A DNA stretch of 64,000 nt from Mycobacterium spongiae (GCF_018278905.1 NZ_CP046600.1:3534001-3598000); one strand, 5' to 3'; positions 32,555 through 56,746 are shown, numbered from the stretch's first letter. Program-made: numbers and translations. The notes: a model not told the origin generated them from the letters alone.

Positions 32555-32651
32555 CAATTGAATTCTGATGTATGGTCTACGCCGACGGCGTCGTGCGCCG
32601 GGCCCTCGCTGGGTCGCCGGCCGGCGAGCGCGTGGGTGCGGGAGGTGTGAC
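32555..32651 (+). promoter_or_regulatory. PE_PGRS promoter and leader shared with the 54.6-kb PE_PGRS
   Basis: The roughly 95 bases before the GTG match those before the PE_PGRS gene at 54671. Common blocks are TGTATGGTCTAC (candidate -10 TATGGT), CTCGCTGGG, GGCCGGC and the ribosome site GGGAGGTGTG. CAATTGAATT lies at the left end and also occurs upstream of the minus-strand PE_PGRS (39.17 kb). Confidence 0.55.
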
Positions 32652-35249
32652 GTGTCGTTTGTAATTACGGTGCCCGAGGTGGTGGCGGCAGCGGCGGCAG
32701 ATTTGGCGGGTCTTGGCTCGATGCTGGGTACGGCCAATGCGGCCGCGGCGGCCCAGACAACCGCGATCGTGGCCGCCGCCGAGGACGAGGTGTCAGCGGG
32801 TATCGCGGCGCTGTTGTCCGGTCATGGCCGGGCTTACCAGGAGCTCAGCGTCCAGGTGGCGGGGTTTCACCAACAGTTCGTGCGGGTGTTGACCGCTACT
32901 GCCGGCGGATACGCGCACGCCGAGGCCGCGAGCGCTGCGCTGATAGCCAGCCCGGCCCAAGCCGTGCCGCTCGATCTGCTGGCCGCCATCAACGCGCCAA
33001 GTCTGGCGCTCACTGGGCGACCACTGATCGGCAACGGCGCGCCAGGTGCCCCGGGTACCGGGGCCGACGGGGGTCCAGGTGGGTGGTTGCTCGGTGATGG
33101 TGGGGCCGGCGGCTTGGGTGCGCCGGGGGTGGCAGGCGGGGACGGCGGGGCCGCCGGTCTGATCGGCACGGGCGGCGCCGGCGGGGCCGGTGGAGGGAGC
33201 TCCGCGGCCGGGGGTACCGGAGGCAGCGGCGGCACCGGCGGATGGCTGTTGGGCACCGGCGGCTCCGGCGGAGCCGGCGGGGCGAGCACGGCCGGTGGCG
33301 GTGCCGGCGGGGCGGGCGGCGCCGGCGGGCTGTTGGGTGCGGGCGGGGTCGGTGGGGCCGGCGGAGACAGCTTCGGCGCCACGACTGACGCGGCGGGCGG
33401 AGCCGGCGGGGCCGGCGGGGCTGGTGGGCTGCTGGCCGGCTTGGTGGGCGCCGGCGGCGGTCAGGGCGGAACCGGCGGGTTAGGTGTCATCGGTGGGGTA
33501 GGTGGCGTCGGCGGTGATGCCGGGCTGCTGTTCGGCAGCGGTGGTGGCGGCGGAGAGGGCGGCACAAGTAGCGCTGGCTCCGGCGATGTCGCCGGGGGTG
33601 CCGGTGGGGCCGGCGGTGCTGCGGGACTGCTGGTCGGCAGCGGCGGGGATGGCGGGGACGGAGGGTTCGGCCCTACCGGCGGGGCGGGCGGCGCCGGCGG
33701 TGATGCCGGGCTGCTGTTCGGCAGCGGCGGGACCGGCGGGACCGGAGGATTCGGCGCCAGCGGCGGGGGCAGCGGCGGGGCCGGTGGTGACGCCGGGTGG
33801 CTTGGCAACGGCGGAGTCGGCGGAATCGGCGGGGCCGCCATACTCCAGTCGGGCGGTGGGGGCGCCGGCGGGACCGGCGGCACGGCCGGGTTGCTGATCG
33901 GCAACGGCGGTGCCGGCGGCCCTGGCGGAGAGGGCGACATGACCGGTGGAGCCGGCGGGAGCGGCGGCAACGGTGGGCTGATCGGCAACGGTGGTAACGC
34001 CGGAATCGGCGGCACCGGCACGACCCCGGGCGCTTCCGGCATCGGTGGGATCAGCGGGGCATTGTTGGGTCTGGACGGATTCAACGCGGCGGCGAGCACC
34101 TCCATCCTGCGCACTCTGCAGCAAGAGGCGCTAGCCGCGATCAACGCACCCATCGAGTCAGTCACCGGGCGTCCGCTGATCGGCAACGGCGCACCCGGGG
34201 ATGCCGGCAGCGGTGCCGACGGCGCACCCGGGGGATGGTTGCTCGGCGATGGCGGAGCCGGCGGGTCGGGCGCGGCGGACTCGGGTATGCCTGGCGGTTC
34301 CGGCGGAGCCGGCGGGCTGTGGGGTACCGGCGGTAGCGGCGGGATCGGCGGCAGCTCGACGGCGGGCGCCGGTGGAGCCGGTGGTGCCGGCGGCGTCGGC
34401 GGATGGCTCTTCGGCGACGGTGGGCTGGGCGCTGCCGGCGGGTTCTCCCAAAACGCCGACGGCGGGGCCGGCGGGGGTGGCGGGGCCGGCGGGCTGCTCG
34501 GCGACGGCGGGGCCGGCGGGGCCGGCGGAGCCAGCACCGGCAGTCCCGCCAATCCGGGTGTCGCGGGGGCCGGCGGGGCGGGCGGCAACGGTGGGCTGCT
34601 GGGCGCCGGCGGGGCCGGCGGCGCTGGTGGACGCGGTCTTATCGCTGGGGCGGGTGGAGCCGGCGGCAACGGCGGGCTGTTTGGCGGTCCCGGCGGCGCC
34701 GGCGGTGCTGGCGGTCCGGGCGCGGCCGCCGGGGGCGCCGGCGGAGCCGGCGGCTACGCCGGGCTGCTGTTCGGTGGTGGCGGCGTCGGCGGAAGCGGCG
34801 GAACTGCATCGGCCGGTGTCGGGGGTGCCGGCGGTGCCGGTGGACCCGGCGGATGGCTCGTGGGCGACGGCGGGGTCGGCGGCTTCGGCGGTGTCGGCGA
34901 CGATGTTGGCGGGGCTGGCGGCACTGGCGGCATCCCCGGTCTTATCGGCGTCGCTGGGGCCGGCGGTGCCGGTGGGACCAGCGTATCCGGGAACGGGGGT
35001 GCCGGCGGGGACGGCGGGCTGTTCGGCGGGCGCTTGTTGGGTAACGGCGGCGCCGGAGGCGCCGGCGGGCAAGCTGACATCTTCGGAGATCCCGGCTCCG
35101 GCGGGGCTGGTGGGATGGGCAGCAACGGGTTGCTGATCGGCAACGGCGGCAACGGCGGCAACGGCGGTGCCGGCACCGCCCCGGGTAGTGCCGGCACCGG
35201 GGGCATCGGCGGGTTGTGGGGCCACAACGGCTTCAACGGGTTGCCATAG
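32652..35249 (+). CDS. PE_PGRS protein with two linker + PGRS modules
   Basis: This 865-residue protein from GTG 32652 has a PE domain (about 1-95; [14 protein letters not shown] secretion motif YxxxE), then linker [20 protein letters not shown] and a Gly-Ala-rich PGRS region. Near residue 475 the first PGRS closes with LLGLDGFNA, the kind of end normally found at a PGRS C-terminus. A second linker ([21 protein letters not shown], cut at GRPLIG) then starts another PGRS that ends [18 protein letters not shown] proteins are exported by the ESX-5 type VII system and sit in the outer envelope. Flanked by phyH on the right. Confidence 0.93.
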
Positions 35250-36327: not shown

Positions 36328-39021
36328 CTATGCGCCGTTGGATCCGTTCTGGCCGAACAGTGTGCCGCCGGTGCCGCCAGTGCCGCCGGGCCCGCCGGAG
36401 TCGCCAGGCCCACCGTTGCCGCCGTTGCCGATCAACACGGCATTGCCACCGTTACCGCCGGTGCCGGCCACGGCGACGGCACTGACTCCGGCGGCGCCGC
36501 CGGTACCGCCGTCGCCCACCTGCGCGGCCCTACCGCCGTTACCGCCAGTGCCGCCGGCGGCGAGATCGCTGGACCCGCCGGATCCGCCTGCCCCGCCGTG
36601 GCCGAACAGCATGGCGCCGTTGCCGCCATTGCCGCCGGTGCCGCCGGCGGCGCCAGCACCACCAGTGCCGGCCGCGCCGGCCCCACCGTTGCCGCCGCTG
36701 CCGATCAGCCCGACCGCGCTGCCGCCACTGCCGCCGGTCCCGCCGTTGCCGGTTGTTCGCACGCTGTCGCCACCATCACCGCCGTCGCCGATCAGCGTCC
36801 CGCCGGCCCCACCGGCCCCACCGTCGCTGTCAGTCCCGCCCCAGCCGCCAGCACCGCCGTTGCCCAAGAACCCGGCGTTGCCGCCGTTACCGGCGGTGCC
36901 CGCATCGTCGGCGGCACCGCCGTCGCCGCCGTTGCCGAGCAGCCACCCGCCGTTGCCGCCGTTACCGGCCGTCCCCCCGCCGCCAGCGATGTTGCCGCCG
37001 AAGAAGCCGCCGCTACCGCCCTGGCCGATCAGCCGAGCATCACCACCGGCCCCCGCCGTCCCACCGCTGGCGAAATAGTTGATGCCACCGTCACCGCCGT
37101 TGCCGTACAACAACCCGCCGACGCCGCCATCCCCACCGGCACCAGCGCCCGGGATTTGGCCGAACCCGCTCGCCCCGCCAGCCCCACCATGGCCGAACAG
37201 CCCGACAGCGGCGCCGCCGACCCCGCCGACCCCCGGGGCGCCCGCGGTGCCTAGCCCGCCGATGCCGCCAGCACCGCCATTGCCGAACAGCCACCCGCCG
37301 GCTCCACCGGCCCCACCGGGGTGGCCGTTGAAATCGGGCCCGCCGATTCCGCCGTTGCCGCCGTTGCCGATCAATCCTGCAGCCCCACCAGCCCCGCCCG
37401 CTTGGCCGGGCGCACCGTTACCACCGTTGCCGCCGTCGCCGTAGAGCAAGCCGCCGGCCTCACCGGCTTGTCCGGGCGCCCCATCGGCGCCGTCGCCGAT
37501 CAACGGGCGACCCAACAGCGCCTCGGTGGGCGCATTCACCACGTCAAGTGGATCCCCCAGCAGCGTTCCGCGAGTGCCGTTGGTGCCGTTGGTGCCACCG
37601 GAGTCGCCGAGCCCGCCGATACCGCCGTTGCCGATCAGCTGGGCGTTGCCGCCGTTACCGCCCGCGCTGGGTGAAACGGCCACGCCGGCGGCGCCGCCGC
37701 TACCACCGTTGCCGATCAGCGCGGCCGTACCGCCGTTTCCACCGGTGCCGCCCACGCCGGCGCTGGAGCCGCCGGATCCCCCGGCCCCGCCGTTACCGAA
37801 CAGCGTGGCGCCGTTGCCGCCATTGCCGCCGTTGCCACCGGTGGCACCGGCAAAGCCGACCGCGCCGGTCCCGCCGTCACCGCCGCTGCCGATCAACCCC
37901 ACAGCGGCGCCACCGTTACCGCCGGTCCCGCCGCTACCGGTGGTGAACACACTGTTGCCGCCGTTGCCGCCGTTGCCGATCAGCGTCCCGCCGGCCCCAC
38001 CGGTGCCGCCGACGCTGTTGGAGCCGCCCCAGCCGCCATCACCGCCGTTGCCGAACAGCCCGGCACTGCCGCCGTTACCGCCCGTGCTCAAAAGATTGGC
38101 TGCGCCGCCGTCGCCGCCGTTGCCGAATAGCCACCCGCCGTTGCCGCCGTTGCCGCCGGTGCCATTGCTGCCTTGGTAGCCGCCGTTGCCGCCGTCGCCG
38201 ATCAGCCGAGCATCGCCACCCGCTCCGGCGCCGTCGCTACCCACCAGCGTGTTGCCGCCGTCACCGCCGTTGCCATACAAGAACCCGCCGACGCCGCCAA
38301 CCCCACCGGCCGCACCGGCACCGGCGGCGCCCTGTCCGCCGATCCCACCGGTCCCGCCATGGCCGAACAGCCCGACAGCGGCGCCGCCGGCCCCGCCGAG
38401 CCCGCCGGCGCCTGCGGTGCCCTGTCCGCCGATCCCGCCGGTACCGCCGTTGCCGAGTAGCCACCCGCCGGCCCCACCAGCGCCGCCGGGCAAGCCGATG
38501 GCGCCGGTCCCGCCGATCCCGCCATTGCCACCGTTGCCGATCAATCCCGCGGCCCCGCCCACACCACCAGCTTGGCCCGCGACACCGTTACCACCATTGC
38601 CGCCATTGCCGTAGAGCAACCCGCCGGCACCACCGGGCTGTCCCGGAGCGCCATCGGCACCATCACCAATCAACGGACGTCCTAGCAACGCCTGCACAGG
38701 CCCGTTCACCACATCCAGCGCAGCCGCCATCGGCAAAGCGTTAGCAGCCTCGGCACTGGCATAGGCTCCCGCGCCGGCCGTCATGGCCTGCACGAACTGC
38801 TGATGAAACGCCGCCGCCTGCGCGCTAATCACCTGATATGCCTGACCGTGAGCATCAAACAGCGCCGCGATGGCCGCCGACACCTCGTCGACACCGGCGG
38901 CCAGCACTCCGGTCGTCGGAATCGCCGCGGCCCCATTAGCCGCGTTGATCGTCGAAGCGATGCTGGCCAAATCCGAGGCCGCCGCCGCCACCATTTCCGG
39001 AGAAGCCACCACGAAGGACAT
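36328..39021 (-). CDS. PE_PGRS protein with two linker + PGRS modules
   Basis: An 897-residue protein from ATG 39021 (ribosome site GGAGA; a GTG codon lies just before). PE domain about 1-97 with SFVVASPE and YASAE, then linker [21 protein letters not shown] and a PGRS rich in GGNGG and GGTGG. The first PGRS closes with [10 protein letters not shown] near residue 490, and a second linker [21 protein letters not shown] starts a second PGRS that ends [11 protein letters not shown]. The two halves resemble each other block by block (LFGHGGTGG / [18 protein letters not shown] in both), so the module was duplicated. Surface-exposed or secreted via ESX-5 by family. Confidence 0.92.
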
Positions 39022-39189
39022 CACCGTCTCCTCACACGATGCCTAATTTCCAACGGCCGGTCCCCGCGCACCGCCGAGTCGGCGCTTGCCCACGCCAGCA
39101 CGGCACAGTCCCAGCAACCGCACCGTAGCGCTATCCCGTCGCCAGATCGACCAATCCGGCTAAACATGACCACAATTCAATTGACGCGA

Positions 39190-40139: not shown

Positions 40140-42740
40140 ATGTCGTTTGTCATTGCGGTGCCCGAGCTGGTCTGGTCAGGGGCAACCGATTTGGCCAGGA
40201 TCGGCTCGACGCTTCGCGCTGCTGATGCGGCCGCGGCGACACAGACGACCGAGATCGTCGCTGCGGCCGAGGATGAGGTGTCGTCGGCGATCGCGGCAGT
40301 GTTTTCCCAGCACGCCCAGAGCTACCAGCAGCTCAGCGCGCGCGTGGCGTCCTTTCATGCCGAGTTTGTGCAGGCGCTGACCGCCGGTGCGGTCGCCTAC
40401 GCCAGCGCTGAAGCCGCCAACGCTGCACCGCTGGCCAGTGCGCAGGGTCTGCTCAACGCCATCAATGCCCCCGTTCAGGCACTGACCGGGCGCCCGTTGA
40501 TCGGCAATGGCGCCAACGGCGCGCCGGGTACCGGCGCAGCGGGCGCACCGGGCGGCTGGTTGCTGGGTAACGGCGGGGCCGGCGGGTCCGGCGCGGCGGG
40601 TATGCCCGGCGGCGCCGGTGGGGCTGCCGGGCTGATCGGTGCCGGCGGCGCTGGCGGTGCTGGCGGGAGTTCTTCGACCGGTAGTGGCGGGGCTGGGGGC
40701 GCCGGTGGGGCCGGGGGGTGGCTGTTGGGCAACGGTGGGTCCGGCGGGGTCGGCGGGGTCGCGATTACCGCCGGTTCGACCGCGGGTGCGGGCGGGATCG
40801 GCGGCGCCGGCGGCCTGCTGGGTGCGGGTGGGATCGGCGGGGCCGGCGGTGAGGGCTCCGGTGCCGCCCTGGCTGGCGGGGCCGGCGGTGCTGGCGGGGC
40901 CGGCGGGCTGCTGGCCGGGCTTGTCGGCGCCAGTGGCGGTGATGGCGGCGACGGCGGCCTCGGCCGAATCGGGGGTGCCGGCGGTGCCGGGGGCAGCGCC
41001 GGATTGCTAGCCGGGTCTGGCGGTGCTGGTGGGGCCGGCGGCGTCGGCGCGGCAGGCGACGGCGGGGCCGGCGGAGCGGGCGGTGACGGCGGGTTGCTGT
41101 TCGGCAGCGGCGGGGCGGGTGGCACCGGAGGTGGCAGCCTGAGCTTCGACGGCGGCACTGGCGGGGCCGGCGGGGATGCCGGGCTGCTGTTCGGCAGTGC
41201 TGGCGCCGGCGGTGCCGGCGGGTCTGGCGAAGGCGGCGGCGGGGCCGGTGGGGCTGGTGGTAGCGCAGTCTGGCTCGGTAATGGCGGAATGGGCGGGGCC
41301 GGCGGGTTCGGCAATACCGGCAACGGCGGTGTCGGCGGAATTGGCGGCAGGGCCGGGCTGCTGATCGGCAATGGCGGGGCCGGCGGATCGGGTGGCGAGG
41401 GCGCAGCGACCGGCGGTGCCGGCGGGGCCGGCGGCGACGCTGTGTTGATCGGCAATGGCGGCAACGGCGGCATCGGCGGCACCGGCCCGTCCGTGGGCGA
41501 CAACGGTGCCGGCGGAATCAGCGGGCTGCTGTTGGGCCTGGATGGCTTCAACGCGCCGGCGAGCGCCTCGCCCGTGCACATCGTGCGGCAAGACGCGCTG
41601 ACCGCGATCAATGCGCCGATCCAGGCATTGACGGGGCGCCCGCTGATCGCCAACGGCACCCCGGGGGCTGCCGGCAGCGGGGCCGCCGGTTCCCCCGGGG
41701 GTTGGCTGCTCGGCGACGGCGGAGCCGGTGGATCCGGTGCCGCGGGTACCGGTCTGGCGGGCGGTGCCGGCGGGGCGGCTGGGCTGTTGGGCACCGGCGG
41801 GGCCGGCGGGGCCGGCGCGAGCTCGGCCGTCGGCGACGGGGGCTCCGGTGGGGCCGGGGGTGCCGGTGGGTGGCTGTTGGGCGACGGCGGGGTCGGCGGT
41901 TTCGGCGGGTTTTCGCTGGCTGACACCGCCGGCGCCGGCGGGGCCGGTGGCAGCGGTGGGTTGCTGGGCGCCGGTGGGGGCGGCGGTGCCGGCGGCAGTG
42001 CCGGGCTCGCCGGTGCCACCAGTGCCGGTGGTGCCGGTGGTGCCGGTGGTGGCGGCGGGTTGTTCGGTGGGCTGGTCGGCGCGGGCGGCGGGGCCGGCGG
42101 GAACGGCGGAGTCGGCGACACCGGGGGCGTCGGTGGGACCGGCGGCGATGCCGGACAGCTTGGCGGAGCCGGCGGGGCCGGCGGAGCTGGCGGATTGAGC
42201 TTTGAATCCGGGATCAACGGCGCAGACGGCGGGGCGGGCGGCAACGCCGGCCTGCTGTTCGGCAGCGGCGGCGGTGGCGGCGACGGTGCGCCCGGCTCCG
42301 TCGGCGGGACCGGCGGGAGCGGCGGCAACGCTGGGCTGCTGTTCTCCAGCGGCGGGGCCGGTGGGCGCGGCGGGTTCGGCCTCAGCCTGGGCGGGGGCGG
42401 CGGCACCGGCGGCACGGGTGGCAACGCCGGCCTGCTGGGCGGCGGCGGTGCCGGCGGTGCCGGCGGAATCGGCGTTTCCGACGACGGAGGGGCCGGCGGG
42501 GCCGGCGGCGCCGGCGGACAACTCTTGGGCAATGGCGGGGCCGGCGGCGCCGGCGGCGAAGCGGGTGTCAGCGGTGCCCCCGGCGACGGCGGGGACGGTG
42601 GTGCTGGCGGCAATGCGGTTCTGGTCGGCAACGGCGGCAACGGCGGCAACGCCGGGACCGGCACACCCGCTGGCAGCCCTGGCACCGGCGGCACCGGCGG
42701 GCTGTTGTTCGGTCAAAACGGACTCAACGGGTCGGCGTAG
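40140..42740 (+). CDS. PE_PGRS protein with two linker + PGRS modules
   Basis: This 866-residue protein starts MSFVIAVPE and has the YASAE secretion motif and linker [21 protein letters not shown]. The first PGRS ends [17 protein letters not shown] (near residue 475), followed by [20 protein letters not shown] and a second PGRS closing with [14 protein letters not shown]. The architecture is the same as the gene at 32652, and the two first modules share many blocks ([32 protein letters not shown]), so they are probably recent paralogues. It converges on the giant PPE gene, 89 bases away. Exported by ESX-5 by family knowledge. Confidence 0.93.
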
Positions 42741-42829: not shown

Positions 42830-45800
42830 TTACTGTTGCTTGGCCGCAGCGGCGAAGCCCGGGAGCAGGCTCAGGGCGGGTAGGTGGGCGGCGGCTGCGG
42901 CGGTGCCGGATTGGATGACGAGTTGGCCGAGGCTGAACAGGCCCGAGTTGCCGGTGCCGGTGTTGAACAAGCCGGTGTTAAACCCGCTGAGGGCACCGCT
43001 GGGGAAGGCCCCGATCGCCGCGGTCACCCCGGTGTTGAACAAGCCTGAGGTCACTCCGTTATCCAACGCACCGGCGGCGGAGTTGAAAAACCCGGAGATA
43101 CTGTGGGCGGTCGCCCCGGAGTTACCCACTCCCGACATCCCGCCCCCGGTGTTGAAGAACCCCGAACTGGCGGTGGCACCAATACCGACCGCACCGGCAC
43201 TGGTGGTGAACCCGAAACCGGTGTTCACATTGCCCGCGTTGCCGATCCCGGTGTTGACATGACCACCGTTACCGAACCCGGTGTTGGCCCCACCGGAGTT
43301 GAAAAACCCGGTGTTGACGTTATTGCCATTGAACCCGCCGGTATTGAGCGAGCCCGCATTACCGAAACCGGTATCCAACAACCCCGAGTTCCCGAACCCG
43401 AAGTTGCCGGCACCGGCGTTGCCGAAGCCCAGATTGCCGACACCGGAGTTGCCGAACCCGAAACTGTTGATCTGGCCCGGGAACACCGTATTCGTCCCCG
43501 CGCTGAAGGCACCGATATTGCCGTCACCAGAGTTGAAGAACCCGATGTTGTTGGTGCCGGAGTTGCCGAAACCGATGTTGCCGCTGCCCGAATTCAACAA
43601 CCCGGCCAGGTTGATCCCCACCTGATTGTCACCGGACAGCCCGATCCCGATGTTGTTGCTGCCGGTGTTGCCGAACCCGAAGTTGTTGTTGCCGGTGTTA
43701 CCGGCACCGATGTTGGCGTTGCCGGTGTTACCGCCACCGAAGTTGCCATCCCCGAGGTTGCCCAACCCGACGTTGTTGTTGCCGGTGTTACCGATACCCA
43801 TGTTGTTATCGCCCGGCGCCACCGAAAAACCGAACAGACTCCCACTGGACAGATCCACCGGGCCGGCGTTGCCGAACCCGACATTACCGACACCATGGTT
43901 ACCGAACCCGAAGTTGAAATCACCGATGTTGCCGCCACCCACATTGCTGTTGCCGTTGTTGCCCCCACCAATGTTGTTGTTACCCGGCAACCCCGGGGTG
44001 AGCCCACTGTTGAACTCACCACTGTTGCCGAACCCCAGGTTGCCGAACCCGATATTGCCGTTGCCGATATTGGCGTTACCCAAATTCCCGTTACCCAGAT
44101 TCGGCAGGTCGGCCAGGACCTGCTGCAGGCCCGGGGGCAAAGCCAGGGCGGGCAGGGCGGGTAGGTGGGCGGCGGCTGCGGCGGTGCCGGATTGGATGAC
44201 GAGTTGGCCGAGGCTGAACAGGCCCGAGTTGCCGGTGCCGGTGTTGAACAAGCCGGTGTTAAACCCGCTGAGTTCCCCGCTGGGGAAGGCCCCGATCGCC
44301 GCGGTCACCCCGGTGTTGAACAAGCCTGAGGTCACTCCGTTATCCAACGCACCGGCGGCGGAGTTGAAAAACCCGGAGATACTGTGGGCGGTCGCCCCGG
44401 AGTTACCCACTCCCGACATCCCGCCCCCGGTGTTGAAGAACCCCGAACTGGCGGTGGCACCAATACCGACCGCACCGGCACTGGTGGTGAACCCGAAACC
44501 GGTGTTCACATTGCCCGCGTTGCCGATCCCGGTGTTGACATGACCACCGTTACCGAACCCGGTGTTGGCCCCACCGGAGTTGAAAAACCCGGTGTTGACG
44601 TTATTGCCATTGAACCCGCCGGTATTGAGCGAGCCCGCATTACCGAAACCGGTATCCAACAACCCCGAGTTCCCGAACCCGAAGTTGCCGGCACCGGCGT
44701 TGCCGAAGCCCAGATTGCCGACACCGGAGTTGCCGAACCCGAAACTATTGATCTGGCCCGGGAACACCGTATTCGTCCCCGCGCTGAAGGCACCGATATT
44801 GCCGTCACCAGAGTTGAAGAACCCGATGTTGTTGGTGCCGGAGTTGCCGAAACCGATGTTGCCGCTGCCCGAATTCAACAACCCGGCCAGGTTGATCCCC
44901 ACCTGATTGTCACCGGACAGCCCGATCCCGATGTTGTTGCTGCCGGTGTTGCCGAACCCGAAGTTGTTGTTGCCGGTGTTGCCGGCACCGATGTTGGCGT
45001 TGCCGGTGTTACCGCCACCGAAGTTGCCATCCCCGAGGTTGCCCAACCCGACGTTGTTGTTGCCGGTGTTACCGATACCCATGTTGTTATCGCCCGGCGC
45101 CACCGAAAAACCAAACAGACTCCCACTGGACAGATCCACCGGGCCGGCGTTGCCGAACCCGACATTACCGACACCATGGTTACCGAACCCGAAGTTGAAA
45201 TCACCGATGTTGCCGCCACCCACATTGCTGTTGCCGTTGTTGCCCCCACCAATGTTGTTGTTACCCGGCAACCCCGGGGTGAGCCCACTGTTGAACTCAC
45301 CACTGTTGCCGAACCCCAGGTTGCCGAACCCGATATTGCCGTTGCCGATATTGGCGTTACCCAAATTCCCGTTACCCAGATTCGGCAGGTCGGCCAGGAC
45401 CTGCTGCAGGCCCGGGGGCAAAGCCAGGGCGGGCAGGGCGGGTAGGTGGGCGGCGGCTGCGGCGGTGCCGGATTGGATGACGAGTTGGCCGAGGCTGAAC
45501 AGGCCCGAGTTGCCGGTGCCGGTGTTGAACAAGCCGGTGTTAAACCCGCTGAGTTCCCCGCTGGGGAAGGCCCCGATCGCCGCGGTCACCCCGGTGTTGA
45601 ACAAGCCTGAGGTCACTCCGTTATCCAACGCACCGGCGGCGGAGTTGAAAAACCCGGAGATACTGTGGGCGGTCGCCCCGGAGTTACCCACTCCCGACAT
45701 CCCGCCCCCGGTGTTGAAGAACCCCGAACTGGCCGTGGCACCAATACCGACCGCACCGGCACTGGTGGTGAACCCGAAACCGGTGTTCACATTGCCCGCG

Positions 45801-48493
45801 TTGCCGATCCCGGTGTTGACATGACCACCGTTACCGAACCCGGTGTTGGCCCCACCGGAGTTGAAAAACCCGGTGTTGACGTTATTGCCATTGAACCCGC
45901 CGGTATTGAGCGAACCCGCATTACCGAAACCGGTATCCAACAACCCCGAGTTCCCGAACCCGAAGTTGCCGGCACCGGCGTTGCCGAAGCCCAGATTGCC
46001 GACACCGGAGTTGCCGAACCCGAAACTGTTGATCTGACCCGGGAACACCGTATTCGTCCCCGCGCTGAAGGCACCGATATTGCCGTCACCAGAGTTGAAG
46101 AACCCGATGTTGTTGGTGCCCGAGTTGCCGAAACCGATGTTGCCGCTGCCCGAATTCAACAACCCGGCCAGGTTGATCCCCACCTGATTGTCACCGGTCA
46201 GCCCGATCCCGATGTTGTTGCTGCCGGTGTTGCCGAACCCGAAGTTGTTGTTGCCGGTGTTGCCGGCACCGATGTTGGCGTTGCCGGTGTTACCGCCACC
46301 GAAGTTGCCATCCCCGAGGTTGCCCAACCCGACGTTGTTGTTGCCGGTGTTACCGATACCCATGTTGTTATCGCCCGGCGCCACCGAAAAACCAAACAGA
46401 CTCCCACTGGACAGATCCACCGGGCCGGCGTTGCCGAACCCGACATTACCGACACCATGGTTACCGAACCCGAAGTTGAAATCACCGATGTTGCCGCCAC
46501 CCACATTGCTGTTGCCGTTGTTGCCCCCACCAATGTTGTTGTTACCCGGCAGCCCCGGGGTGAGCCCACTGTTGAACTCACCACTGTTGCCGAACCCCAG
46601 GTTGCCGAACCCGATATTGCCGTTGCCGATATTGGCGTTACCCAAATTCCCGTTACCCAGATTCGGCAGGTCGGCCAGGACCTGTTGCAGGCCCGGGGGC
46701 AAAGCCAGGGCGGGCAGGGCGGGTAGGTGGGCGGCGGCTGCGGCGGTGCCGGATTGGATGACGAGTTGGCCGAGGCTGAACAGGCCCGAGTTGCCGGTGC
46801 CGGTGTTGAACAAGCCGGTGTTAAACCCGCTGAGTTCCCCGCTGGGGAAGGCCCCGATCGCCGCGGTCACCCCGGTGTTGAACAAGCCTGAGGTCACTCC
46901 GTTATCCAACGCACCGGCGGCGGAGTTGAAAAACCCGGAGATACTGTGGGCGGTCGCCCCGGAGTTACCCACTCCCGACATCCCGCCCCCGGTGTTGAAG
47001 AACCCCGAACTGGCGGTGGCACCAATACCGACCGCACCGGCACTGGTGGTGAACCCGAAACCGGTGTTCACATTGCCCGCGTTGCCGATCCCGGTGTTGA
47101 CATGACCACCGTTACCGAACCCGGTGTTGGCCCCACCGGAGTTGAAAAACCCGGTGTTGACGTTATTGCCATTGAACCCGCCGGTATTGAGCGAACCCGC
47201 ATTACCGAAACCGGTATCCAACAACCCCGAGTTCCCGAACCCGAAGTTGCCGGCACCGGCGTTGCCGAAGCCCAGATTGCCGACACCGGAGTTGCCGAAC
47301 CCGAAACTATTGATCTGACCCGGGAACACCGTATTCGTCCCCGCGCTGAAGGCACCGATATTGCCGTCACCAGAGTTGAAGAACCCGATGTTGTTGGTGC
47401 CCGAGTTGCCGAAACCGATGTTGCCGCTGCCCGAATTCAACAACCCGGCCAGGTTGATCCCCACCTGATTGTCACCGGACAGCCCGATCCCGATGTTGTT
47501 GCTGCCGGTGTTGCCGAACCCGAAGTTGTTGTTGCCGGTGTTACCGGCACCGATGTTGGCGTTGCCGGTGTTACCGCCACCGAAGTTGCCATCCCCGAGG
47601 TTGCCCAACCCGACGTTGTTGTTGCCGGTATTACCGATACCCATGTTGTTATCGCCCGGCGCCACCGAAAAACCAAACAGACTCCCACTGGACAGATCCA
47701 CCGGGCCGGCGTTGCCGAACCCGACATTACCGACACCATGGTTACCGAACCCGAAGTTGAAATCACCGATGTTGCCGCCACCCACATTGCTGTTGCCGTT
47801 GTTGCCCCCACCAATGTTGTTGTTACCCGGCAACCCCGGGGTGAGCCCACTGTTGAACTCACCACTGTTGCCGAACCCCAGGTTGCCGAACCCGATATTG
47901 CCGTTGCCGATATTGGCGTTACCCAAATTCCCGTTACCCAGATTCGGCAGGCCCGCCAAGAACTGCTGCAAACCCGGCGGCAAAGCCAACCCGGGAAGCG
48001 AAGCCACCGCCGCCGACGCCCCGGCGTGATACCCGGCCATGGCCGCCACGTCGGCCGCCCACATCTCCTCATAAATGCCCTCAACCGCGGCGATCGCCGG
48101 CGCGTTCTGCCCAAAGACGTTCGACACCACCAACTGCACCAACGAGTTCCGATTCGCCACCACCGCCAACGGATCAATCGTCGCCGCACGCGCAGCCTCA
48201 AACACACTCACCGCCGCACGCGCCTGCCCGGCCGCCTCCACGGCCTTGGCCGCGGCGGTGGCCAGATACTGCGCATAGGGCGCGGCCGCGGCCAACATCG
48301 CCGCCGAGGCCGCACCCTGCCACGCCTGACCCGCCAACTCCGATGTCACCGATGAAAACGACGACGCCGCGGTCCCCACCTCTGCGGCTAGCCCATCCCA
48401 GGCCGTGGCCGCGTCCAGCATGGGTGCCGATCCCGCACCCGTGAACATCAGCAATGAATTGATCTCCGGTGGCAGCATCGCGAAATTTGGCAC
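42830..48493 (-). CDS. Giant PPE-MPTR protein with four near-identical 427-residue repeats
   Basis: An 1887-residue PPE protein. GTG 48493 was chosen because it starts at [10 protein letters not shown] (the PPE motif at residues 8-10) and has an AAGGAG ribosome site. PPE domain about 1-165, then four tandem 427-residue copies of MPTR sequence built from NxGxGNxG pentapeptide-like units ([25 protein letters not shown]). Each copy opens with [21 protein letters not shown] and ends [21 protein letters not shown]. The protein ends [19 protein letters not shown] proteins are ESX-5 substrates at the cell surface. Upstream 5' extension to 48775 is not coding. Confidence 0.93.
42868..47991 (-). repeat. 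Four tandem copies of a 1281-bp unit inside the PPE gene
   Basis: The same landmarks recur every 1281 bases, for example the TAGGTGGGCGGCGGC block at 42881, 44162, 45443 and 46724. Unit limits are about 42868, 44149, 45430, 46711 and 47991. Copies differ at scattered single bases only. The period is a multiple of three (427 codons), so copy number can change without breaking the reading frame. The outer edges diverge: the leftmost copy lacks the LPALALPPG junction and the rightmost merges into [15 protein letters not shown]. Confidence 0.95.
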
Positions 48494-49371
48494 GCTCGAG
48501 CTCCTTTCGACGCCGCGCGTCGACCGCGAGGCGACTGGGACGGAGGCGGAAATCGGGGATCTCGCCTGGGATGCTATGTCGGCGGCGCCGCGCAGATCGG
48601 GCGCTTCGCGGGCTGATCCCCAATAGTGAGTCCAGCCGCTATTAGAGCCGGGTTGTCGTTGATAGGGATCTGATCTGACGATTACATCCCGGCGTTTCAA
48701 GATTTGCCAGCTCGGCCGAATGGCGCCCGCAGCGAAGTTCGAGGTCGTGGCCATTGAACACTGCACCGATTTCACGTGCCAACTGCTCCGGCGCGGGGGT
48801 GAACCTCCAGTTCGTCAGGGCAGCAACGGTACTAACGATCAACGGGTCGCGGTCGACAAAGGCAGAACACGCACGAGCGGGCAGGTAATCGTCCCCAGAA
48901 GGGGCGGCGGAGCCGCAATCTCGATGGTGGACCCGCAGTTTGCTCGCTGCGGCGCCGCGCATTCGCGTCCTAGCAATGGCGCGACCGATGAGCAAACTGG
49001 GAAACCTCGTAGGACAGGTAGCCCCGCACGCCGCCAATGGCGTCCGGCTTGGCCTTCTCTCCCCTGCCGCGTCGGATCCCATGACTACACGCCCGAGCGC
49101 GTCGTAGCCCCGCCTGTTGACCGCCAGTGTGTATCTTGCCCGGCCGTTCGTCGATGGGCCTCGGGGTCGCGGCGGTCGCGATCGCTGGCCGCGATCGGGG
49201 CGGCACGGGGGGTGGGGCAACGGTGTCCGACCCGATTCCCTTGACCTCAGATGGACCGAGATGGTCGGTGCGCGACCCAGCGATCATGCGTTGAATCTCG
49301 GGCCCGTGGGCAGCAGGACAGGCCACATTGAGCTGGTTGAAGCCCTGGGTGTGGCCGGTTTGACGATCCCG
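48494..49371. other. Long intergenic region, possible decayed ORF
   Basis: Almost 900 bases separate the PPE start from the TetR promoter. A minus-strand frame within about 48642-48900 reads coherently ([38 protein letters not shown]), which suggests a fragment of a former gene, but it has no start, ribosome site or known motif. Nothing else was recognised. Confidence 0.4.
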
Positions 49372-50120: not shown

Positions 50121-50546
50121 ATACCCACTCCGCGCTGTCCACGGACATCCTCGACACCCACCGCTGGCCCCACCAACAACGGTGCTGGCGACATACCTAC
50201 TGCCCCGACACCGGCCACCTGGGCGCCATTCTCACCACCATGCCGCCCCGAAGACCGCCATACCGTGGCCACTAGCCAGACCGGGGCAAATGTCGAAGAC
50301 GGCAACGCCGCTCGCGGTGGCTCGCGCTGCGGTGTAGGCCTCACCGACGACATGGCTAACACCCCCAAATCCTCCCATTAGCAGGCACATTCACGATGCC
50401 GGCTCTCAACAATATTTCTCGATTGGATGGTGTCCATAGTGGACCACAACACACTCATTGACGACAACAGCACACTCACAGACGCAGGCCCCATCGATCC
50501 GATGCAGACCAGCAGCCACGCGTCAGCATGGAGGCTCGACAACATC
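50121..50546. other. Gap between the TetR gene and the IS3 OrfA
   Basis: A 52-codon frame begins with an ATG overlapping the TetR stop (50117) but shows no family features. The left end of the IS3 element must lie in this stretch. I could not find terminal inverted repeats or a target duplication by eye. Confidence 0.35.
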
Positions 50547-50828
50547 ATGACGACGCGGAAGCGGCACAGCCCGGAGCAGATTATGCGCAAATTGGCGACG
50601 GCCGATCGGCTGTTGGCCAAAGGCATGGGAACCGCAGCGGTCTGCCGCGAGCTGGGCGTCTCGGAGGCGACGTATTACCGCTGGCGCAACCAGTTTGGTG
50701 GCTTGAAAGCTGATGACGCCAAACGGCTCAAAGACCTTGAGCGAGAAAACGCCAGACTCACGCGTCGGCTCGCCGATGCCGAGTTGGAGATGATCGCGCT
50801 AAAGGAGATCGCGAAGGGAAACTTCTAG
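50547..50828 (+). CDS. IS3-family OrfA (DNA-binding subunit)
   Basis: This 93-residue protein has an HTH_Tnp_1 domain: KRHSPEQIMRKLATADRLLAKGMGTAAVCRELGVSEATYYRWRNQFGG, followed by a leucine-zipper-like helix KRLKDLERENARLTRRLADAELEMIALKEIAKGNF. The ending KEIAKGNF is a common close for this IS3 subgroup in actinobacteria. The final codons contain a frameshift heptamer before the TAG. ATG 50547 begins the usual MTTRKRHS start. Confidence 0.9.
   Translation: MTTRKRHSPEQIMRKLATADRLLAKGMGTAAVCRELGVSEATYYRWRNQFGGLKADDAKRLKDLERENARLTRRLADAELEMIALKEIAKGNF
50816..50822 (+). promoter_or_regulatory. Programmed -1 frameshift heptamer GGGAAAC
   Basis: In the OrfA frame the sequence reads G GGA AAC, an exact X XXY YYZ slippery site, two codons before the OrfA stop. 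A slip back of one base moves translation into the OrfB frame, which is open at this point (LLGPERRRAAV follows). This would make the OrfAB fusion transposase. Confidence 0.75.
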
Positions 50829-51661
50829 GCCCGGAACGTCGGCGGGCGGCCGTTCAACATCTCCAGTGCGCGCTGGGGGTCAGTGAGCGGTTCGCGTGCC
50901 GGGTTACCGGGCAGCCCCGCGCTACTCAGCGATACCAGCCTGCAGCCACGACGCCGGATCCCGATGCGGCGTTGCGAGATTGGCTGCGCAGCTACGCGAA
51001 GAAGCATCCAGGACGTGGGTTCCGGCCAGCGTATCGCGATGCCGTTGCTGAAGGCTGGTTGGTCAATCACAAGAAGATTCAACGACTTTGGCGCGAAGAG
51101 GGGTTGCGGGTCTCGCAACACCGTCGTCGCAATGGCCAAGACGGCTCGATGGCGCCCGCGGCGACGCACGCCGACAGGCCCAACCGCGTGTGGGCAGTGG
51201 GTTTCCAATTCGGGACCACCATCGACGGACGACCGATCAGGATCATGTCCATCGTCGATGAGCACACCCGCGAATGCCTCGGAGGACTGATCGCATACAG
51301 CATCACCACCGAAGCCATTGTCTCCGTGCTCGAAAGGCTCAAAGCCGGCCGTGGAACTCATCCGGAAGTGTTGCGCTGTCACAACGGTCCCGAATTGGCC
51401 AGCGCGGCAATGGCACAATGGTCCCGGGGACAATCAAGTCTGCGCTTCGTCCCGCCCGGGGCGCCGTGGCGCGACGGCTACATCGAATGGTTCAACTCAC
51501 GCATACGCGATGAGTGCCTCAACTCCAACAGCTTCTGGTCACTGAATCAGGCCCGGATGCTCATCAACGATTGGAAGCACAACTACAACCACCACCGACG
51601 CCATGCCGTGCTCGGCCACTTACCACCTGCCCGCTACGCCGCAAAGTGTGCCCAGCAATAA
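50822..51661 (+). CDS. IS3-family OrfB (integrase domain), catalytic residues lost
   Basis: About 279 codons read in the -1 frame from OrfA. Family landmarks are present: LLGPERRRAAVQHL, HTH_21-like LRDWLRSYAKKHPGRGFRPAYRDA, RVSQHRRR, then the rve core. However, the first catalytic site reads RVWAVGFQFG where the family has WAVDFQFD, and the second reads LRCHNGPELA where it has LRCDNGPELA. The third (YIEWFNSRIRDECLN) keeps its Glu. Two of three DDE acids are therefore gone while the frame stays open. It has no normal start codon, so it is made only by frameshifting. Confidence 0.85.
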   Translation, partial: LLGPERRRAAVQHLQCALGVSERFACRVTGQPRATQRYQPAATTPDPDAALRDWLRSYAKKHPGRGFRPAYRDAVAEGWLVNHKKIQRLWREEGLRVSQHRRRNGQDGSMAPAATHADRPNRVWAVGFQFGTTIDGRPIRIMSIVDEHTRECLGGLIAYSITTEAIVSVLERLKAGRGTHPEVLRCHNGPELASAAMAQWSRGQSSLRFVPPGAPWRDGYIEWFNSRIRDECLNSNSFWSLNQARMLINDWKHNYNHHRRHAVLGHLPPARYAAKCAQQ

Positions 51662-52134: not shown

Positions 52135-53694
52135 TCAGCACGGACCGCTGGGAGTTCCGCGCACGGGTGTGGTCTCCTGCGTGGGCATTACCTGCGGGAA
52201 CGGCACCCGATAAGGAGGAGTCAGCTTCGCAAGGGTTGTTGCGGTGTCGGGGACGCATTGCACCTGTTGCGGCACCGCCTTCAATAGCGGGTGGTTGAGA
52301 AACGGTGTGGACGCGTTCGGCGGCGCGGCGAAGTTGAAGGTTGACGTCATATCGCCGGTCACACCTCTTCGCCAAGCGGTCAGGTTGGGAACTGGCACAC
52401 CGAACCGTGTCTCGAGCAACCGCAGCTGCGAGGTGTGGTCGAAAGTGTCACTGACCAACAGCGGGCCGCGGCTGAATGGCGAAATGATAAAGCAGGGGAC
52501 GCGATAGCCCAGACCAATCGGCCCACGGATGCCGCCGGAACCGGTGACGCTGTCGATATCGGGCACCGTGACGAACTCGCCGGGAGTTCCCGGCGGCGCA
52601 GTAGGCGGTATGACGTGGTCAAAGAAACCTCCGTTTTCGTCAAAGCTGACGATCAGCGCGGTCTTTTCCCACACCGCGGGATTGGACAGCAATATGCGGA
52701 GGATGTTGACGATCGCGGTGCCGCCGAATGCCGGTGTTATCGGCAATGACGGATGTTCGGATACCTGAAAACCGGGCAGTACCCAGGAAACCTGGGGCAG
52801 CCTGTTGGCGAGGACATCGGCGGCGAAGTTAAAGGGATAGCTCGGGGCTATGCCCCGCCGGGCCATCTCGGAGCGCGGATTTTGGGCCTGTTGGAAATCA
52901 ACAAGCATCCCGTTGTAGCCGAGGACTGTGTTGTTGAGTGCGCCGAGAAGCTTGTTTTGGTACACCTTCCACGTGATGCCGGCATCGCTGAGGTTGTCCG
53001 GCATGGTGCGCCAAGTGAAGTTGCCCTGCGGTTGGATGGTGGGGTCTATCAGCAGTGGACCACCGTCGACACCGTCGGGATCGATCCAGGCACTCATCCA
53101 GTACAGCCGATTCGGCGAGGTCCCGCCGATCAGCGAACAGTGGTAGGCGTCGCACAGGGTGAACGTGTCGGCTAGCAGATAGTGGATCGGTTGGTCTTGA
53201 CGCGTGTAGAAACCCATCGTCACCGGGATGTTGCCCTGCAACGTTTGCGCTTGGGCCTGCGCGGGCAACCAATTGTCGTTGGCGCCATTGTTAAATGCCC
53301 GGTGCATGTCGATCCATTGGTGGCCGGGATCGTTGACACACGCGCCGTTAATCAGTGGGCCGCGGGTGGTGTCGAACCGATACGGGATGGTGACGCCGGC
53401 GGGGTCAACCGACTGTGTCTCAGGGTTCCAACCGGCCTGGGCAAAAAGTGGCGACCCGCTGTCGAACCCGTCAACGCCCGAGAGCGAACCGAAGTAGTGA
53501 TCAAACGACCGGTTCTCCTGCAGCATGAACACGAAGTGCTCGATGTCGGTCAAGTGGCCACCACACGGGCCAGCGCCGTAGGCCTTTTCGATCACCGGAC
53601 CGGCCAACGACATCATGGCGCCAGCGCTGGTTGCGGCCGCGACCTTCGCCATGAACTCTCGCCGCGACATGCCGTCGACTGGGTGTTTGCTCAC
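52135..53694 (-). CDS. plcB: Tat-exported phospholipase C (PlcB-like)
   Basis: A 519-residue enzyme from GTG 53694 (ribosome site AGGAAGGA; GTG 53697 and ATG 53670 are alternatives). It begins with a twin-arginine leader ([30 protein letters not shown], i.e. SRREF then a hydrophobic run) and the conserved AYGAGPC. The phosphoesterase signature [27 protein letters not shown] holds Thr/Asn metal-site residues, and [12 protein letters not shown] supplies the acid and His. The end [15 protein letters not shown] is the PlcA-D C-terminus. It cleaves phosphatidylcholine and similar lipids outside the cell, an established virulence-associated family. Which Plc paralogue it descends from is not certain. 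Confidence 0.93.
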
Positions 53695-54000
53695 CACCCT
53701 GTCCTTCCTGTTGGACATTGCGGTCGACGCTATATTTGCGGAGGCGATCAGCATCCAAACCTGGCCGGTGTGTCGCGCCCGGATTTTGGTGCTAGCCGCC
53801 AAGAGAAGTGCGTCGGTCACAGACACCCGCGCCGAGCGGACTGAGCGGGGCGATGAGCCGCCGACGACCACGCACATACAGCGGCGACAACCGTTACTCC
53901 ACAGGCGTCGTGTAATGCCCCGGGCGGTGCAATCCTGCAAAGCCGGGAGATTGCGTTGGCCGGGCAAATACGGCAAATAGTTGAGCTACAATGTGCCACT

Positions 54001-54569: not shown

Positions 54570-54670
54570 ACCATTCAGTTGATGTCTAGTGTATGGTCTA
54601 CCGACAGCTTCGTGTGCCAGGACCTCGCTGGGACGTTGGCCGGCTGGGACGTACGTGTGGGAGGTGTGCT
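54570..54670 (+). promoter_or_regulatory. PE_PGRS promoter/leader shared with the 32.6-kb gene
   Basis: GTGTATGGTCTACCGA, CTCGCTGGG, GGCCGGC and GGGAGGTGTG recur in the same order and spacing as before the PE_PGRS at 32652. Candidate -10 is TATGGT (about 54592-54597). The similarity stops at the start codon side of the two PE domains only gradually, as those are also related. Confidence 0.55.
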
Positions 54671-56746
54671 GTGTCGTTCGTGATTGCTATGCCCGAAGTC
54701 ATGGGTGCAGCGGCGGCGGACTTGGCGGGTGTTGGCTCGACGCTGAGCGCGGCCAATGCGGCGGCGGTGGCCCAGACGAGCGCCCTCGTGGCCGCCGCCG
54801 AGGACGAGGTGTCAGCGGCTATCGCCGCGTTGTTTTCCGTCCACGGCGAGGCCTACCAGGCGCTCAGCGCTCAGACGGCGGCGTTTCATGCCCAGTTCGT
54901 GCGGGCCCTCACGAGCGCCGCGGGCGCCTATGACGGGGCTGAGGCGGCTAGCGCGTCGCCGTTGCAGGCTTTTGAACGAGGTGTGCTGGGGGCGATCAAC
55001 GCGCCTGCGCAGGCGTTGTTGGGGCGCCCGTTGATCGGCGACGGTACTAGCGGGACGGCCGGGACCGGAGCCAACGGCGGGGCCGGCGGGCTGCTCATCG
55101 GCAACGGCGGCAACGGCGGATCCGGGGCACCCGGCCAGACCGGCGGGGCCGGCGGGGCTGCGGGGTTGATCGGCAATGGCGGTCGTGGCGGGGCCGGCGG
55201 TTCCGGCGTCACCGGCCTGGCCGGGGGTGCCGGTGGGGCTGGCGGCTGGCTGCTGGGCAACGGCGGCGTCGGCGGACTCGGGGGCGTGGGCACCGGCGGC
55301 GGGGGCGGGGTCGGTGGGGCCGGCGGCGCGGCGGTGGGGTTGTTCGGCCATGGCGGGATCGGTGGGATCGGCGGTGCCGGCGGTGCTTCCCTCGGTGGGG
55401 TCGGCGGGGTTGGCGGCAGCGGTGGGTTGTTCTACGGCAATGGCGGCACCGGCGGCACCGGCGGTACCGGCGCCCTGGCGGGCACCGGCGGCACCGGCGG
55501 CACTGCCGCCGGGCTGATCGGCAACGGCGGGGCTGGCGGAGCCGGCGCGACCGGCGCCGCCGGCACTGACGGAATGGCGCCGGGAGCAGCTGGCACTAAC
55601 GGCGCCAACGGAGGGACCGGTGGGGCCGGCGGCAACGGTGGGCTGCTCTTCGGTGATGGCGGCGCGGGTGGCTCCGGCGGCGTCGGCGGTACCGGCGGTC
55701 GCGGCGCCGATGGCAATATCGTCGTCAACGGTGGTCGCGGCGGCGACGGCGGCGACGGTGGCGACCCCGGGGCTGGCGGCATCGGCGGGACCGGCGCTGC
55801 CGTTGTCGGTGCCGACGGCCCAGCTGGGCAGACTCCCACTTCCGGCGGTAACGGCGGCAACGGCGGCCACGGCGCCGATAGCCTCGTCAACGCCATCAAC
55901 GGCGGTGATGGCGGCAACGGCGGTAACGGCGGCGTCGTCGGCGACGGTGGGGCCGGCGGTATCGGCGGCGCCGGCGCTCACGGCCCGGACAACACCCCCT
56001 TCAGCAGTATCGGCAGTCGCGGCGGTCACGGCGGCAACGGCGGCGACGGGGGCACACTCAGCGGTGACGGCGGCATCGGCGGTCGCGGCGGCATCGGCGG
56101 CAACGGCGGCGACAACGCCGGCGACTTCAGTGTCGGCGCTCCTGGCGGGGACGGCGGTGACGGCGGCTCCGGCACCACCGGTACCGGGGGCAACGGCGGG
56201 GCGGGCGGCAACGGCGGTACCGCCGGCGTCAGCGCCGGCGGCAGCGCCGGCGGTAGCCAGGGCGGTAGCGGCGGTTCTGGCGGTGACGGCGGCGACAGCA
56301 TTGGCGGTGACGGCGGTGACGGCGGCAATGGCGGCCTCGCCGCGGATGGCCGCGACAACAACGCCGGCGACAGCATCGGCGGTGACGGCGGTGACGGTGG
56401 TGATGGCGGCGACAGCATCACCGGGGCCGGCGGGGCCGCCGGCGCCGCCAGCGGTGGCGGCAATGGCGGCGACAACGCCGGCTTCTTCAGTGTCGGCGGT
56501 CGCGGCGGGGACGGCGGCGACGGGGGCGCCAGCACCACTGGGGCTGGCCGCGACGGCGCGGCGGGCGGCAATGGCGGCGACGGCGGCGCCAACGCCGGCA
56601 CCAGTCAGGGCGGTAGCGGCGGTGACGGCGGTGACGGCGGTACGGGCAGCGGCGGCCCCGGCGATACAGGCATTCTCGGTGGCAGCGCGGTCGGCGGCAT
56701 GGGTGGCCTCGGCGGCGGGGGCGGTGACGGCGGACCGGCCGCCTAG
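54671..56746 (+). CDS. PE_PGRS protein with an Asp-rich, RTX-like C-terminal half
   Basis: A 691-residue protein from GTG 54671. PE domain about 1-95 ([14 protein letters not shown]), linker [19 protein letters not shown], then an ordinary GGAGG-type PGRS. From about residue 350 the repeat changes to GGDGG/GGNGGD, with segments such as GGDGGDSIG and GGDGGDSIT that fit the RTX nonapeptide consensus GGxGxDxUx, and a repeated block ([20 protein letters not shown] / [20 protein letters not shown]). It ends GGDGGPAA without the usual PGRS close. Calcium binding is a reasonable inference. ESX-5 export by family. Unlike the other three, it has one linker only. Confidence 0.93.

What the first reader, a model, noticed from the sequence alone, without database searches (positions are those of the whole stretch)
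42868..47991. PPE gene built from four in-frame 1281-bp tandem copies
Landmarks recur exactly every 1281 bases four times, giving four 427-residue copies that differ only at scattered bases. MPTR proteins normally contain short pentapeptide repeats; a long unit amplified almost unchanged is a different scale of repetition. Because the period is a multiple of three, copy number can shift by recombination without losing the protein, so this may be a size-variable surface antigen.
Basis: seen in the sequence. Interest (0 to 1): 0.88.

Follow-up and report, generated by a model that had tools for sequence, protein, structure and literature searches.

The report
Mycobacterial PPE gene with quadrupled domain
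A PPE protein gene in a sponge mycobacterium carries four nearly identical copies of its whole 427-residue repeat domain where related genes examined carry one, an extreme and unusually readable case of a known way in which these proteins grow.

Summary
On the minus strand, CDS 42830-48493 (1887 aa) encodes one PPE domain and four head-to-tail, in-frame 1281-bp units, 98.4-99.4% identical. The genome is Mycobacterium spongiae FSD4b-SM (size match to PMC11361433).

New: (1) a second PPE gene about 700 kb away, on the other strand, carries two near-identical units and a mosaic third; units 1 and 2 match in register. (2) 24 of 24 homologous ORFs in 15 other genomes have one unit. (3) Junctions between units are a patchwork of the other gene's C-terminal tail and the linker after the PPE domain, suggesting unequal recombination. 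(4) Units are shuffled: 47 of 78 informative site pairs show four gametes. (5) 13 of 17 changes are synonymous. (6) The unit is predicted as a beta-solenoid.

Long near-identical repeats also occur in 23 of 67 other large PPE ORFs scanned in four species, and PPE_MPTR 'cassette duplications' are published (PMC4858275). Verdict: real, an extreme member of a known kind; 'size-variable antigen' is untested.

The parts
42830..48493 (-). PPE-MPTR gene (gene A), 1887 aa, likely GTG start
   Evidence: ORF, translation; PF00823 at residues 3-167 and 16 stretches of PF01469
48501..48507 (-). ribosome-binding-site-like AAAGGAG, 7 bases upstream of the GTG start
   Evidence: read from the alignment; role inferred
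47993..48493 (-). PPE domain; last 245 bp identical to paralogue B, first half diverged
   Evidence: fold match to PPE15 of PE8-PPE15-EspG5 (5xfs_B, 50% identity)
46712..47992 (-). unit A1 (427 aa)
45431..46711 (-). unit A2
44150..45430 (-). unit A3
42869..44149 (-). unit A4
46665..46729 (-). junction A1/A2: patchwork of stretches like the C-terminal tail of paralogue B and like the linker after the PPE domain
45384..45448 (-). junction A2/A3, corresponding stretch (one base different in the unit start)
44103..44167 (-). junction A3/A4, corresponding stretch
42833..42868 (-). C-terminal tail of gene A (differs from B's tail)

Best explanation
Gene A is a PPE-MPTR gene of M. spongiae whose whole C-terminal pentapeptide-solenoid domain (427 aa with its linker) was amplified in frame from one copy to four by homologous recombination, and the copies are kept alike by further recombination within the gene and with a second gene (B) about 700 kb away. 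Proposed order: a single-unit ancestor as in relatives; gain of a C-terminal tail resembling the linker behind the PPE domain; unequal recombination between these two flanking sequences, giving a tandem pair; transfer of the 5' two-unit part, in register, between B and A; growth to four units in A; repeated conversion among units. Because the unit is a whole solenoid domain and its length is a multiple of three, each gain or loss should leave a folded, exportable protein longer or shorter by one module. SHOWN by sequence: four units, in-register sharing with B, single units in relatives, patchwork junction, incompatibility of unit sites with a tree, excess of synonymous change. PREDICTED: the solenoid fold. 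INFERRED: the order of events and the donor, export by ESX-5 as an elongated surface or secreted rod, and ongoing copy-number change.
For: (four units, 98.4-99.4% identical). (B1 differs from A1 by 7 and B2 from A2 by 6 of 1281; B3 is a mosaic). (245-bp identical run in an otherwise 94% identical PPE domain and 149-bp identical run between B2 and B3, each reached in 0 of 2000 permutations; 800-bp flanks of A and B score about as shuffled sequence). (47 of 78 informative site pairs with four gametes, at least 7 recombination events). (396 genus genomes searched, 16 with a match at E<=1e-100 including this one; 24 of 24 homologous ORFs in the 15 others carry one unit). (19 of 19 relatives' tails printed end where the unit's MPTR ends; 10 of 10 relatives' linkers printed have the LQQ motif that B repeats in its tail). 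(13 of 17 body sites synonymous, 6.3 expected, P=0.0002 in 5000 simulations). (unit model pLDDT 78.8, pTM 0.79, strands every five residues). (PPE domain nearest to PPE15, solved with EspG5).
Against: The junction is not a clean two-part hybrid: 5' to 3' it follows B's tail (15 bases), then the linker (14 of 17 bases, counted by eye), then the tail again (24 of 26, against 19 of 26 for the linker), then the linker exactly. So the first crossover point is unclear, later conversion or a changed tail must be assumed, and illegitimate recombination is not excluded. Gene A's own tail lacks the LQQ motif. No shared flanks were found between A or B and the fetched 9-10 kb relatives' loci, so orthology and ancestral position are unknown. 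Four-gamete pairs could partly be recurrent mutation. No expression data were seen. Foldseek gave no PDB match at E<=0.001 for the unit, and the predicted C-terminal helix has pLDDT under 50 from residue 414 on.
Confidence: 0.75

Rival explanations
1. Size-variable surface antigen: unit number changes often within the species and is selected by a host's defences.
For: Copy number differs between the two loci and from relatives; unit length keeps the frame; cassette number differs among M. bovis, M. tuberculosis and M. canettii PPE_MPTR proteins (PMC4858275); intragenic pe/ppe structural variants between two M. tuberculosis strains were in-frame in 17 of 25 (PMC12817950 passages).
Against: Only one isolate; differences between units are mostly synonymous, so change would be in length rather than epitopes; sponge isolate without observable pathology in mice (PMC11361433); three closely related KZN genomes of M. 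tuberculosis had identical sequences of the hypervariable ppe genes compared (PMC3319526 passages).
Confidence: 0.2
2. Assembly artefact: one or two real copies expanded by the assembler.
For: Repeats of this kind are prone to misassembly; I could not see reads.
Against: Copies differ from each other at 8-21 of 1281 sites, 13 of 17 body sites synonymous, unlike random error; a second locus has the same units; PacBio RSII with an 8-kb size cut-off and Illumina correction (PMC11361433) against a 5.1-kb array.
Confidence: 0.05
3. Plain whole-gene duplication of an already multi-unit gene followed by independent drift, without conversion.
For: Units match in register between A and B.
Against: The 5' half of the PPE domain and the 800-bp flanks differ while the next 2.8 kb differs at 13 of 2807 sites; B3 is a patchwork of identical and 62-86% identical blocks; four-gamete pairs among units.
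Confidence: 0.08
4. A dedicated cassette-exchange system, B acting as a donor store for A, comparable in logic to silent-locus antigenic variation.
For: In-register exchange between two distant loci and shuffling among units.
Against: B is a full gene with its own start and PPE domain; ordinary gene conversion between PE/PPE paralogues is known (PMC12046097 passages); I did not look for a dedicated recombinase.
Confidence: 0.07

Closest known systems
Cassette duplications of pentapeptide-2 regions in PPE_MPTR proteins (Warholm and Light 2016, PMC4858275)
   Same: Tandem duplication of large blocks of many pentapeptide repeats behind one PPE domain; cassette number differs between species and strains (section 11 part 1 read).
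   Different: Here the copies are still 98.4-99.4% identical in DNA, the cassette is the entire MPTR domain of a short single-unit PPE protein, single-unit relatives survive, and part of the array is shared in register with a second locus. Their 'event motif' is in a supplement I could not read, so it was not compared.
VNTR-bearing and hypervariable M. tuberculosis ppe genes (ppe8, ppe10, ppe24, ppe34, ppe54, ppe55)
   Same: MPTR genes that vary by in-frame repeat or indel changes (PMC3319526; PMC12817950; passages only).
   Different: The unit here is 1281 bp; that the VNTR units in those genes are tens of bases is recalled, not read.
PE/PPE gene-conversion pairs in M. tuberculosis (pe_pgrs17/18, pe_pgrs27/28, ppe18/19)
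   Same: Sequence exchange between paralogues, ppe18/19 being 190 kb apart (PMC12046097 passages).
   Different: Here the shared tract is about 2.8 kb, spans two units in register, and joins loci about 700 kb apart.
Large internal repeats in other PPE-MPTR genes of this and related genomes
   Same: 23 of 67 other PPE ORFs of at least 690 aa scanned have 250 bp or more of direct repeat at 95% or better; the spacings printed are multiples of three with one exception.
   Different: Among the repeats printed (at most six per ORF) none has four full head-to-tail copies of so long a unit. Nearest: two copies of a 1277-aa block (L097), three partial copies spaced about 2.7-2.8 kb (L116, L176), and about four copies of a 148-151-aa unit (L109).

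Membership tests
PPE family | N-terminal PPE domain PF00823 over the curated cut-off | tested here: met
   196.7 bits against a cut-off of 26, residues 3-167; fold matches to solved PPE domains
PPE-MPTR subfamily | C-terminal NxGxGNxG pentapeptide repeats (PF01469) | tested here: met
   428.1 bits, 16 stretches; motif definition in PMC1660551 (passages)
ESX-5 substrates | Secretion dependent on ESX-5 and EspG5 | not testable with these tools
   Only indirect: nearest solved PPE domain is PPE15 in a PE8-PPE15-EspG5 complex
PPE_MPTR cassette duplication | Tandem duplication of a block of many pentapeptide-2 repeats within one PPE protein | tested here: met
PPE_MPTR cassette duplication | Spacer region and 'event motif' bordering the cassettes | tested here: inconclusive
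   A short LP-rich linker lies between units; the published motif is in a supplement that could not be read
VNTR / size-variable locus | Copy number differs between isolates of one species | not testable with these tools
   One isolate held; only differences between loci and species seen
Gene-conversion pair | Tract of near-identity inside otherwise diverged paralogues | tested here: met
Known solved beta-solenoid folds (for example YadA-like heads, curli, pentapeptide-repeat proteins) | Structural match to a solved solenoid well above background | tested here: inconclusive

The most novel reading that the evidence does not exclude
Genes A and B form a fast, possibly adaptive module-exchange pair: a folded solenoid domain is gained, lost and swapped between two distant loci by recombination at its two ends, so that one strain population displays surface rods of different lengths; this is a frozen early stage of how 3000-residue PPE-MPTR giants arise.
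Probability: 0.15. Interest if true: 0.7.

Novelty: new member of a known kind. Interest (0 to 1): 0.45.

Why it matters
How the giant PPE-MPTR proteins of tuberculosis-related mycobacteria arose is usually hidden by divergence. Here the likely ancestor (one unit), the product (four units), the junctions and a second locus in exchange can all be read, in a species that caused no observable pathology in mice. Copy-number change becomes testable by long-read sequencing alone. It also shows a practical blind spot: only five of 1887 residues are K or R, and residues 116-1884 contain none, so trypsin-based proteomics can hardly see this protein.

Tried and rejected
Whole-protein homology search found relatives of 33-65% identity over part of the query; its length limits hide single-unit homologues, so I repeated it with PPE domain plus unit 1 and with the unit alone. 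Each search scored only the 7983-7994 candidates sharing most words. The only listed hit over 90% was P0066, a metagenome protein of 362 aa whose last residues depart from the query; its copy number could not be learned. Shared flanks between A or B and relatives' loci were looked for and not found. G016, a 4.3-Mb genome taken as a contrast, has no PPE ORF over 786 aa and was not used further. Foldseek with the PPE-plus-unit model gave only PPE-type domains at E<=0.001, so the unit was folded alone; Foldseek then gave nothing at E<=0.001. No pentapeptide-repeat protein such as MfpA (recalled) was listed, which does not exclude that fold. Paper search added nothing that I used.

Left out of counts: one M. 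spongiae PPE ORF of at least 690 aa (L093, 723 aa) was fetched but not recognised by the BLAST filter; it had no repeat. For G120 12 of 13 and for G006 16 of 21 ORFs of at least 690 aa were fetched, for G044 9 of 9; one of the G120 ORFs was cut by the end of the stretch. L001 and L006 repeat L133 and L135 and are counted once.

Full report
OBSERVATION. The array is real. Lag-1281 identity is 0.988-1.0 in the 250-bp blocks wholly inside it, against at most 0.63 (600-base windows) for lags that are not multiples of 1281. Matching spans 42872-47951; in codon register the units are 47992-46712, 46711-45431, 45430-44150 and 44149-42869 on the minus strand. Pairwise DNA identity among the four is 98.36-99.38% and they differ by 1-5 residues per pair. 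The open frame is 42830-48775, and the likely start is the GTG at 48493 ([10 protein letters not shown]...) with AAAGGAG seven bases before it. The product of 1887 aa has one PPE domain (PF00823) and 16 stretches of PF01469.

ORIGIN OF THE WINDOW. The genome is one contig of 5,581,157 bp, the size of M. spongiae FSD4b-SM, CP046600, from a Great Barrier Reef sponge (PMC11361433: passages, section 12; not the whole text, no supplements). The paper reports PacBio plus Illumina sequencing, 82 PPE genes, expansion of PE/PPE genes most likely by duplication and homologous recombination, at least 29 PE/PPE proteins seen by proteomics (whether this one is among them I could not check), and no observable pathology in mice. 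The passages and section that I read do not mention this array.

A SECOND LOCUS. Searching the own genome with one unit gave seven near matches: the four here and three in another PPE gene (B, genome 2876836-2881254, plus strand, locus L088). B1 differs from A1 at 7 and B2 from A2 at 6 of 1281 sites, while B1 and B2 differ at 24. B3 is a mosaic, 85.9% identical to B2 over aligned sites, with identical stretches up to 149 bp (0 of 2000 permutations) beside 50-base blocks as low as 62-76%. In the PPE domain the first half differs and the last 245 bp are identical (0 of 2000 permutations); the 800-bp flanks upstream and downstream give local alignment scores of 11.5 and 15.0 against means of 10.4 and 11.3 for ten shuffles each. 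The other own-genome matches listed (the list is cut) are partial and at most 71% identical. This is the pattern of an exchanged tract inside two otherwise distinct genes.

SHUFFLING AND CONSTRAINT. Among A1-A4, B1 and B2, outside the linker, 17 sites vary, 13 of them informative; 47 of 78 informative pairs show all four combinations, and at least 7 recombination events are needed. Of the 17 changes 13 are synonymous, with 6.3 expected if placed at random with the same spectrum (0.0002 of 5000 simulations). Random sequencing error would not do this, which also speaks against an assembly artefact.

ANCESTRAL STATE. A DNA search of 396 genomes of the genus (drawn evenly from a larger group; only the best candidate places of each genome were scored) found 16 with E<=1e-100, the own genome included. 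I fetched every listed place in the 15 others. Counting ORFs with a unit match of 425 bits or more in L128-L145, L089 and L090, there are 24 (one of them cut off from its PPE domain by a stop), of 434-690 aa, and 24 of 24 hold one unit; their further printed matches overlap the first. A looser count over all loci held at that point (1521 ORFs of at least 250 aa, 130 matched at E<=1e-15) gave 16 with no match of 70% coverage, 90 with one unit and 24 with two or more (13, 6, 3, 1, 1). Of these 24, three are gene A, a fetched part of it (L073) and gene B; the other 21 have best identities of 30-51%. So multi-block PPE proteins are common; near-identical multiples of this unit were seen only in A and B.

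JUNCTION. In 19 of 19 relatives printed (of the 24), the protein ends shortly after the motif that closes the unit's MPTR (...SLGQLV... and variants). B instead continues with ...HLPALSLPPGLQQILADLSK..., which resembles the linker behind the PPE domain, [20 protein letters not shown]; the LQQ motif is in the linker of 10 of 10 relatives for which it was printed (9 others were not caught by my pattern). The DNA at the A1/A2 junction is a patchwork, counted by eye in the alignments: 15 bases as in B's tail, 17 bases closer to the linker (14 of 17; the tail has a gap there), 26 bases closer to the tail (24 of 26, against 19 of 26 for the linker), then linker sequence exactly. I read this as unequal recombination between tail and linker, blurred by later conversion or change. 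It is inference, the similarity is short, and gene A's own tail lacks the motif.

LITERATURE. Cassette duplications in PPE_MPTR proteins, with four cassettes in M. bovis, five in M. tuberculosis and two or six in M. canettii in one group, are published (PMC4858275; outline, passages and section 11 part 1 read). [quoted passage not shown] Eight searches of an open-access library listed no paper whose title or abstract start describes this gene; several of those lists show only the first 8-20 of more papers, and subscription papers are mostly not held.

VERDICT. A true, striking and well resolved case of a known process, with three additions: surviving single-unit relatives, junctions that can still be read, and in-register exchange with a distant gene. 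Function and copy-number change in living populations are not shown.

Noticed in passing
window 50427-50828 (+) and 50972-51661 (+): IS3-family transposase pieces (orfA-like; orfB-like without its N-terminus, both below the NCBIfam cut-off) about 2 kb upstream of the PPE gene, although PMC11361433 states that the genome has no insertion sequences.
   Followed up: partly
L097:765-11651 (-), genome 3645264-3656150: 3629-aa PPE ORF with two 99.9% identical 1277-aa MPTR blocks followed by a GRPWIG-like linker and a glycine-rich PGRS-like tail: looks like a PPE-MPTR/PGRS hybrid; Pfam called only PPE and Pentapeptide_2 there.
   Followed up: partly
window 52135-53976 (-): Phospholipase C-like protein (PF04185; TIGR03396 below its cut-off) near the PPE gene; a plc gene beside a ppe gene recalls the plcD-PPE24 region of M. 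tuberculosis (recalled, not tested).
   Followed up: no
window 32568-35249, 36328-39024, 40140-42740, 54593-56746: Four PE_PGRS genes lie within about 10 kb on either side of the PPE gene.
   Followed up: no
window 42830-48493: Only five K/R residues in 1887 (83, 92, 102, 115, 1885) and no cysteine: nearly invisible to trypsin-based proteomics.
   Followed up: yes
L101 (genome 2237000-2249500): Three adjacent PPE genes share long stretches, up to 100% identical in 300-bp windows, at gene spacing: a further candidate for conversion.
   Followed up: no
P0066 (metagenome protein, 13,030-bp ENA contig): 94-95% identical relative of the PPE domain and first part of the unit, 362 aa, whose last residues depart from the query; possibly an environmental M. 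spongiae relative.
   Followed up: partly
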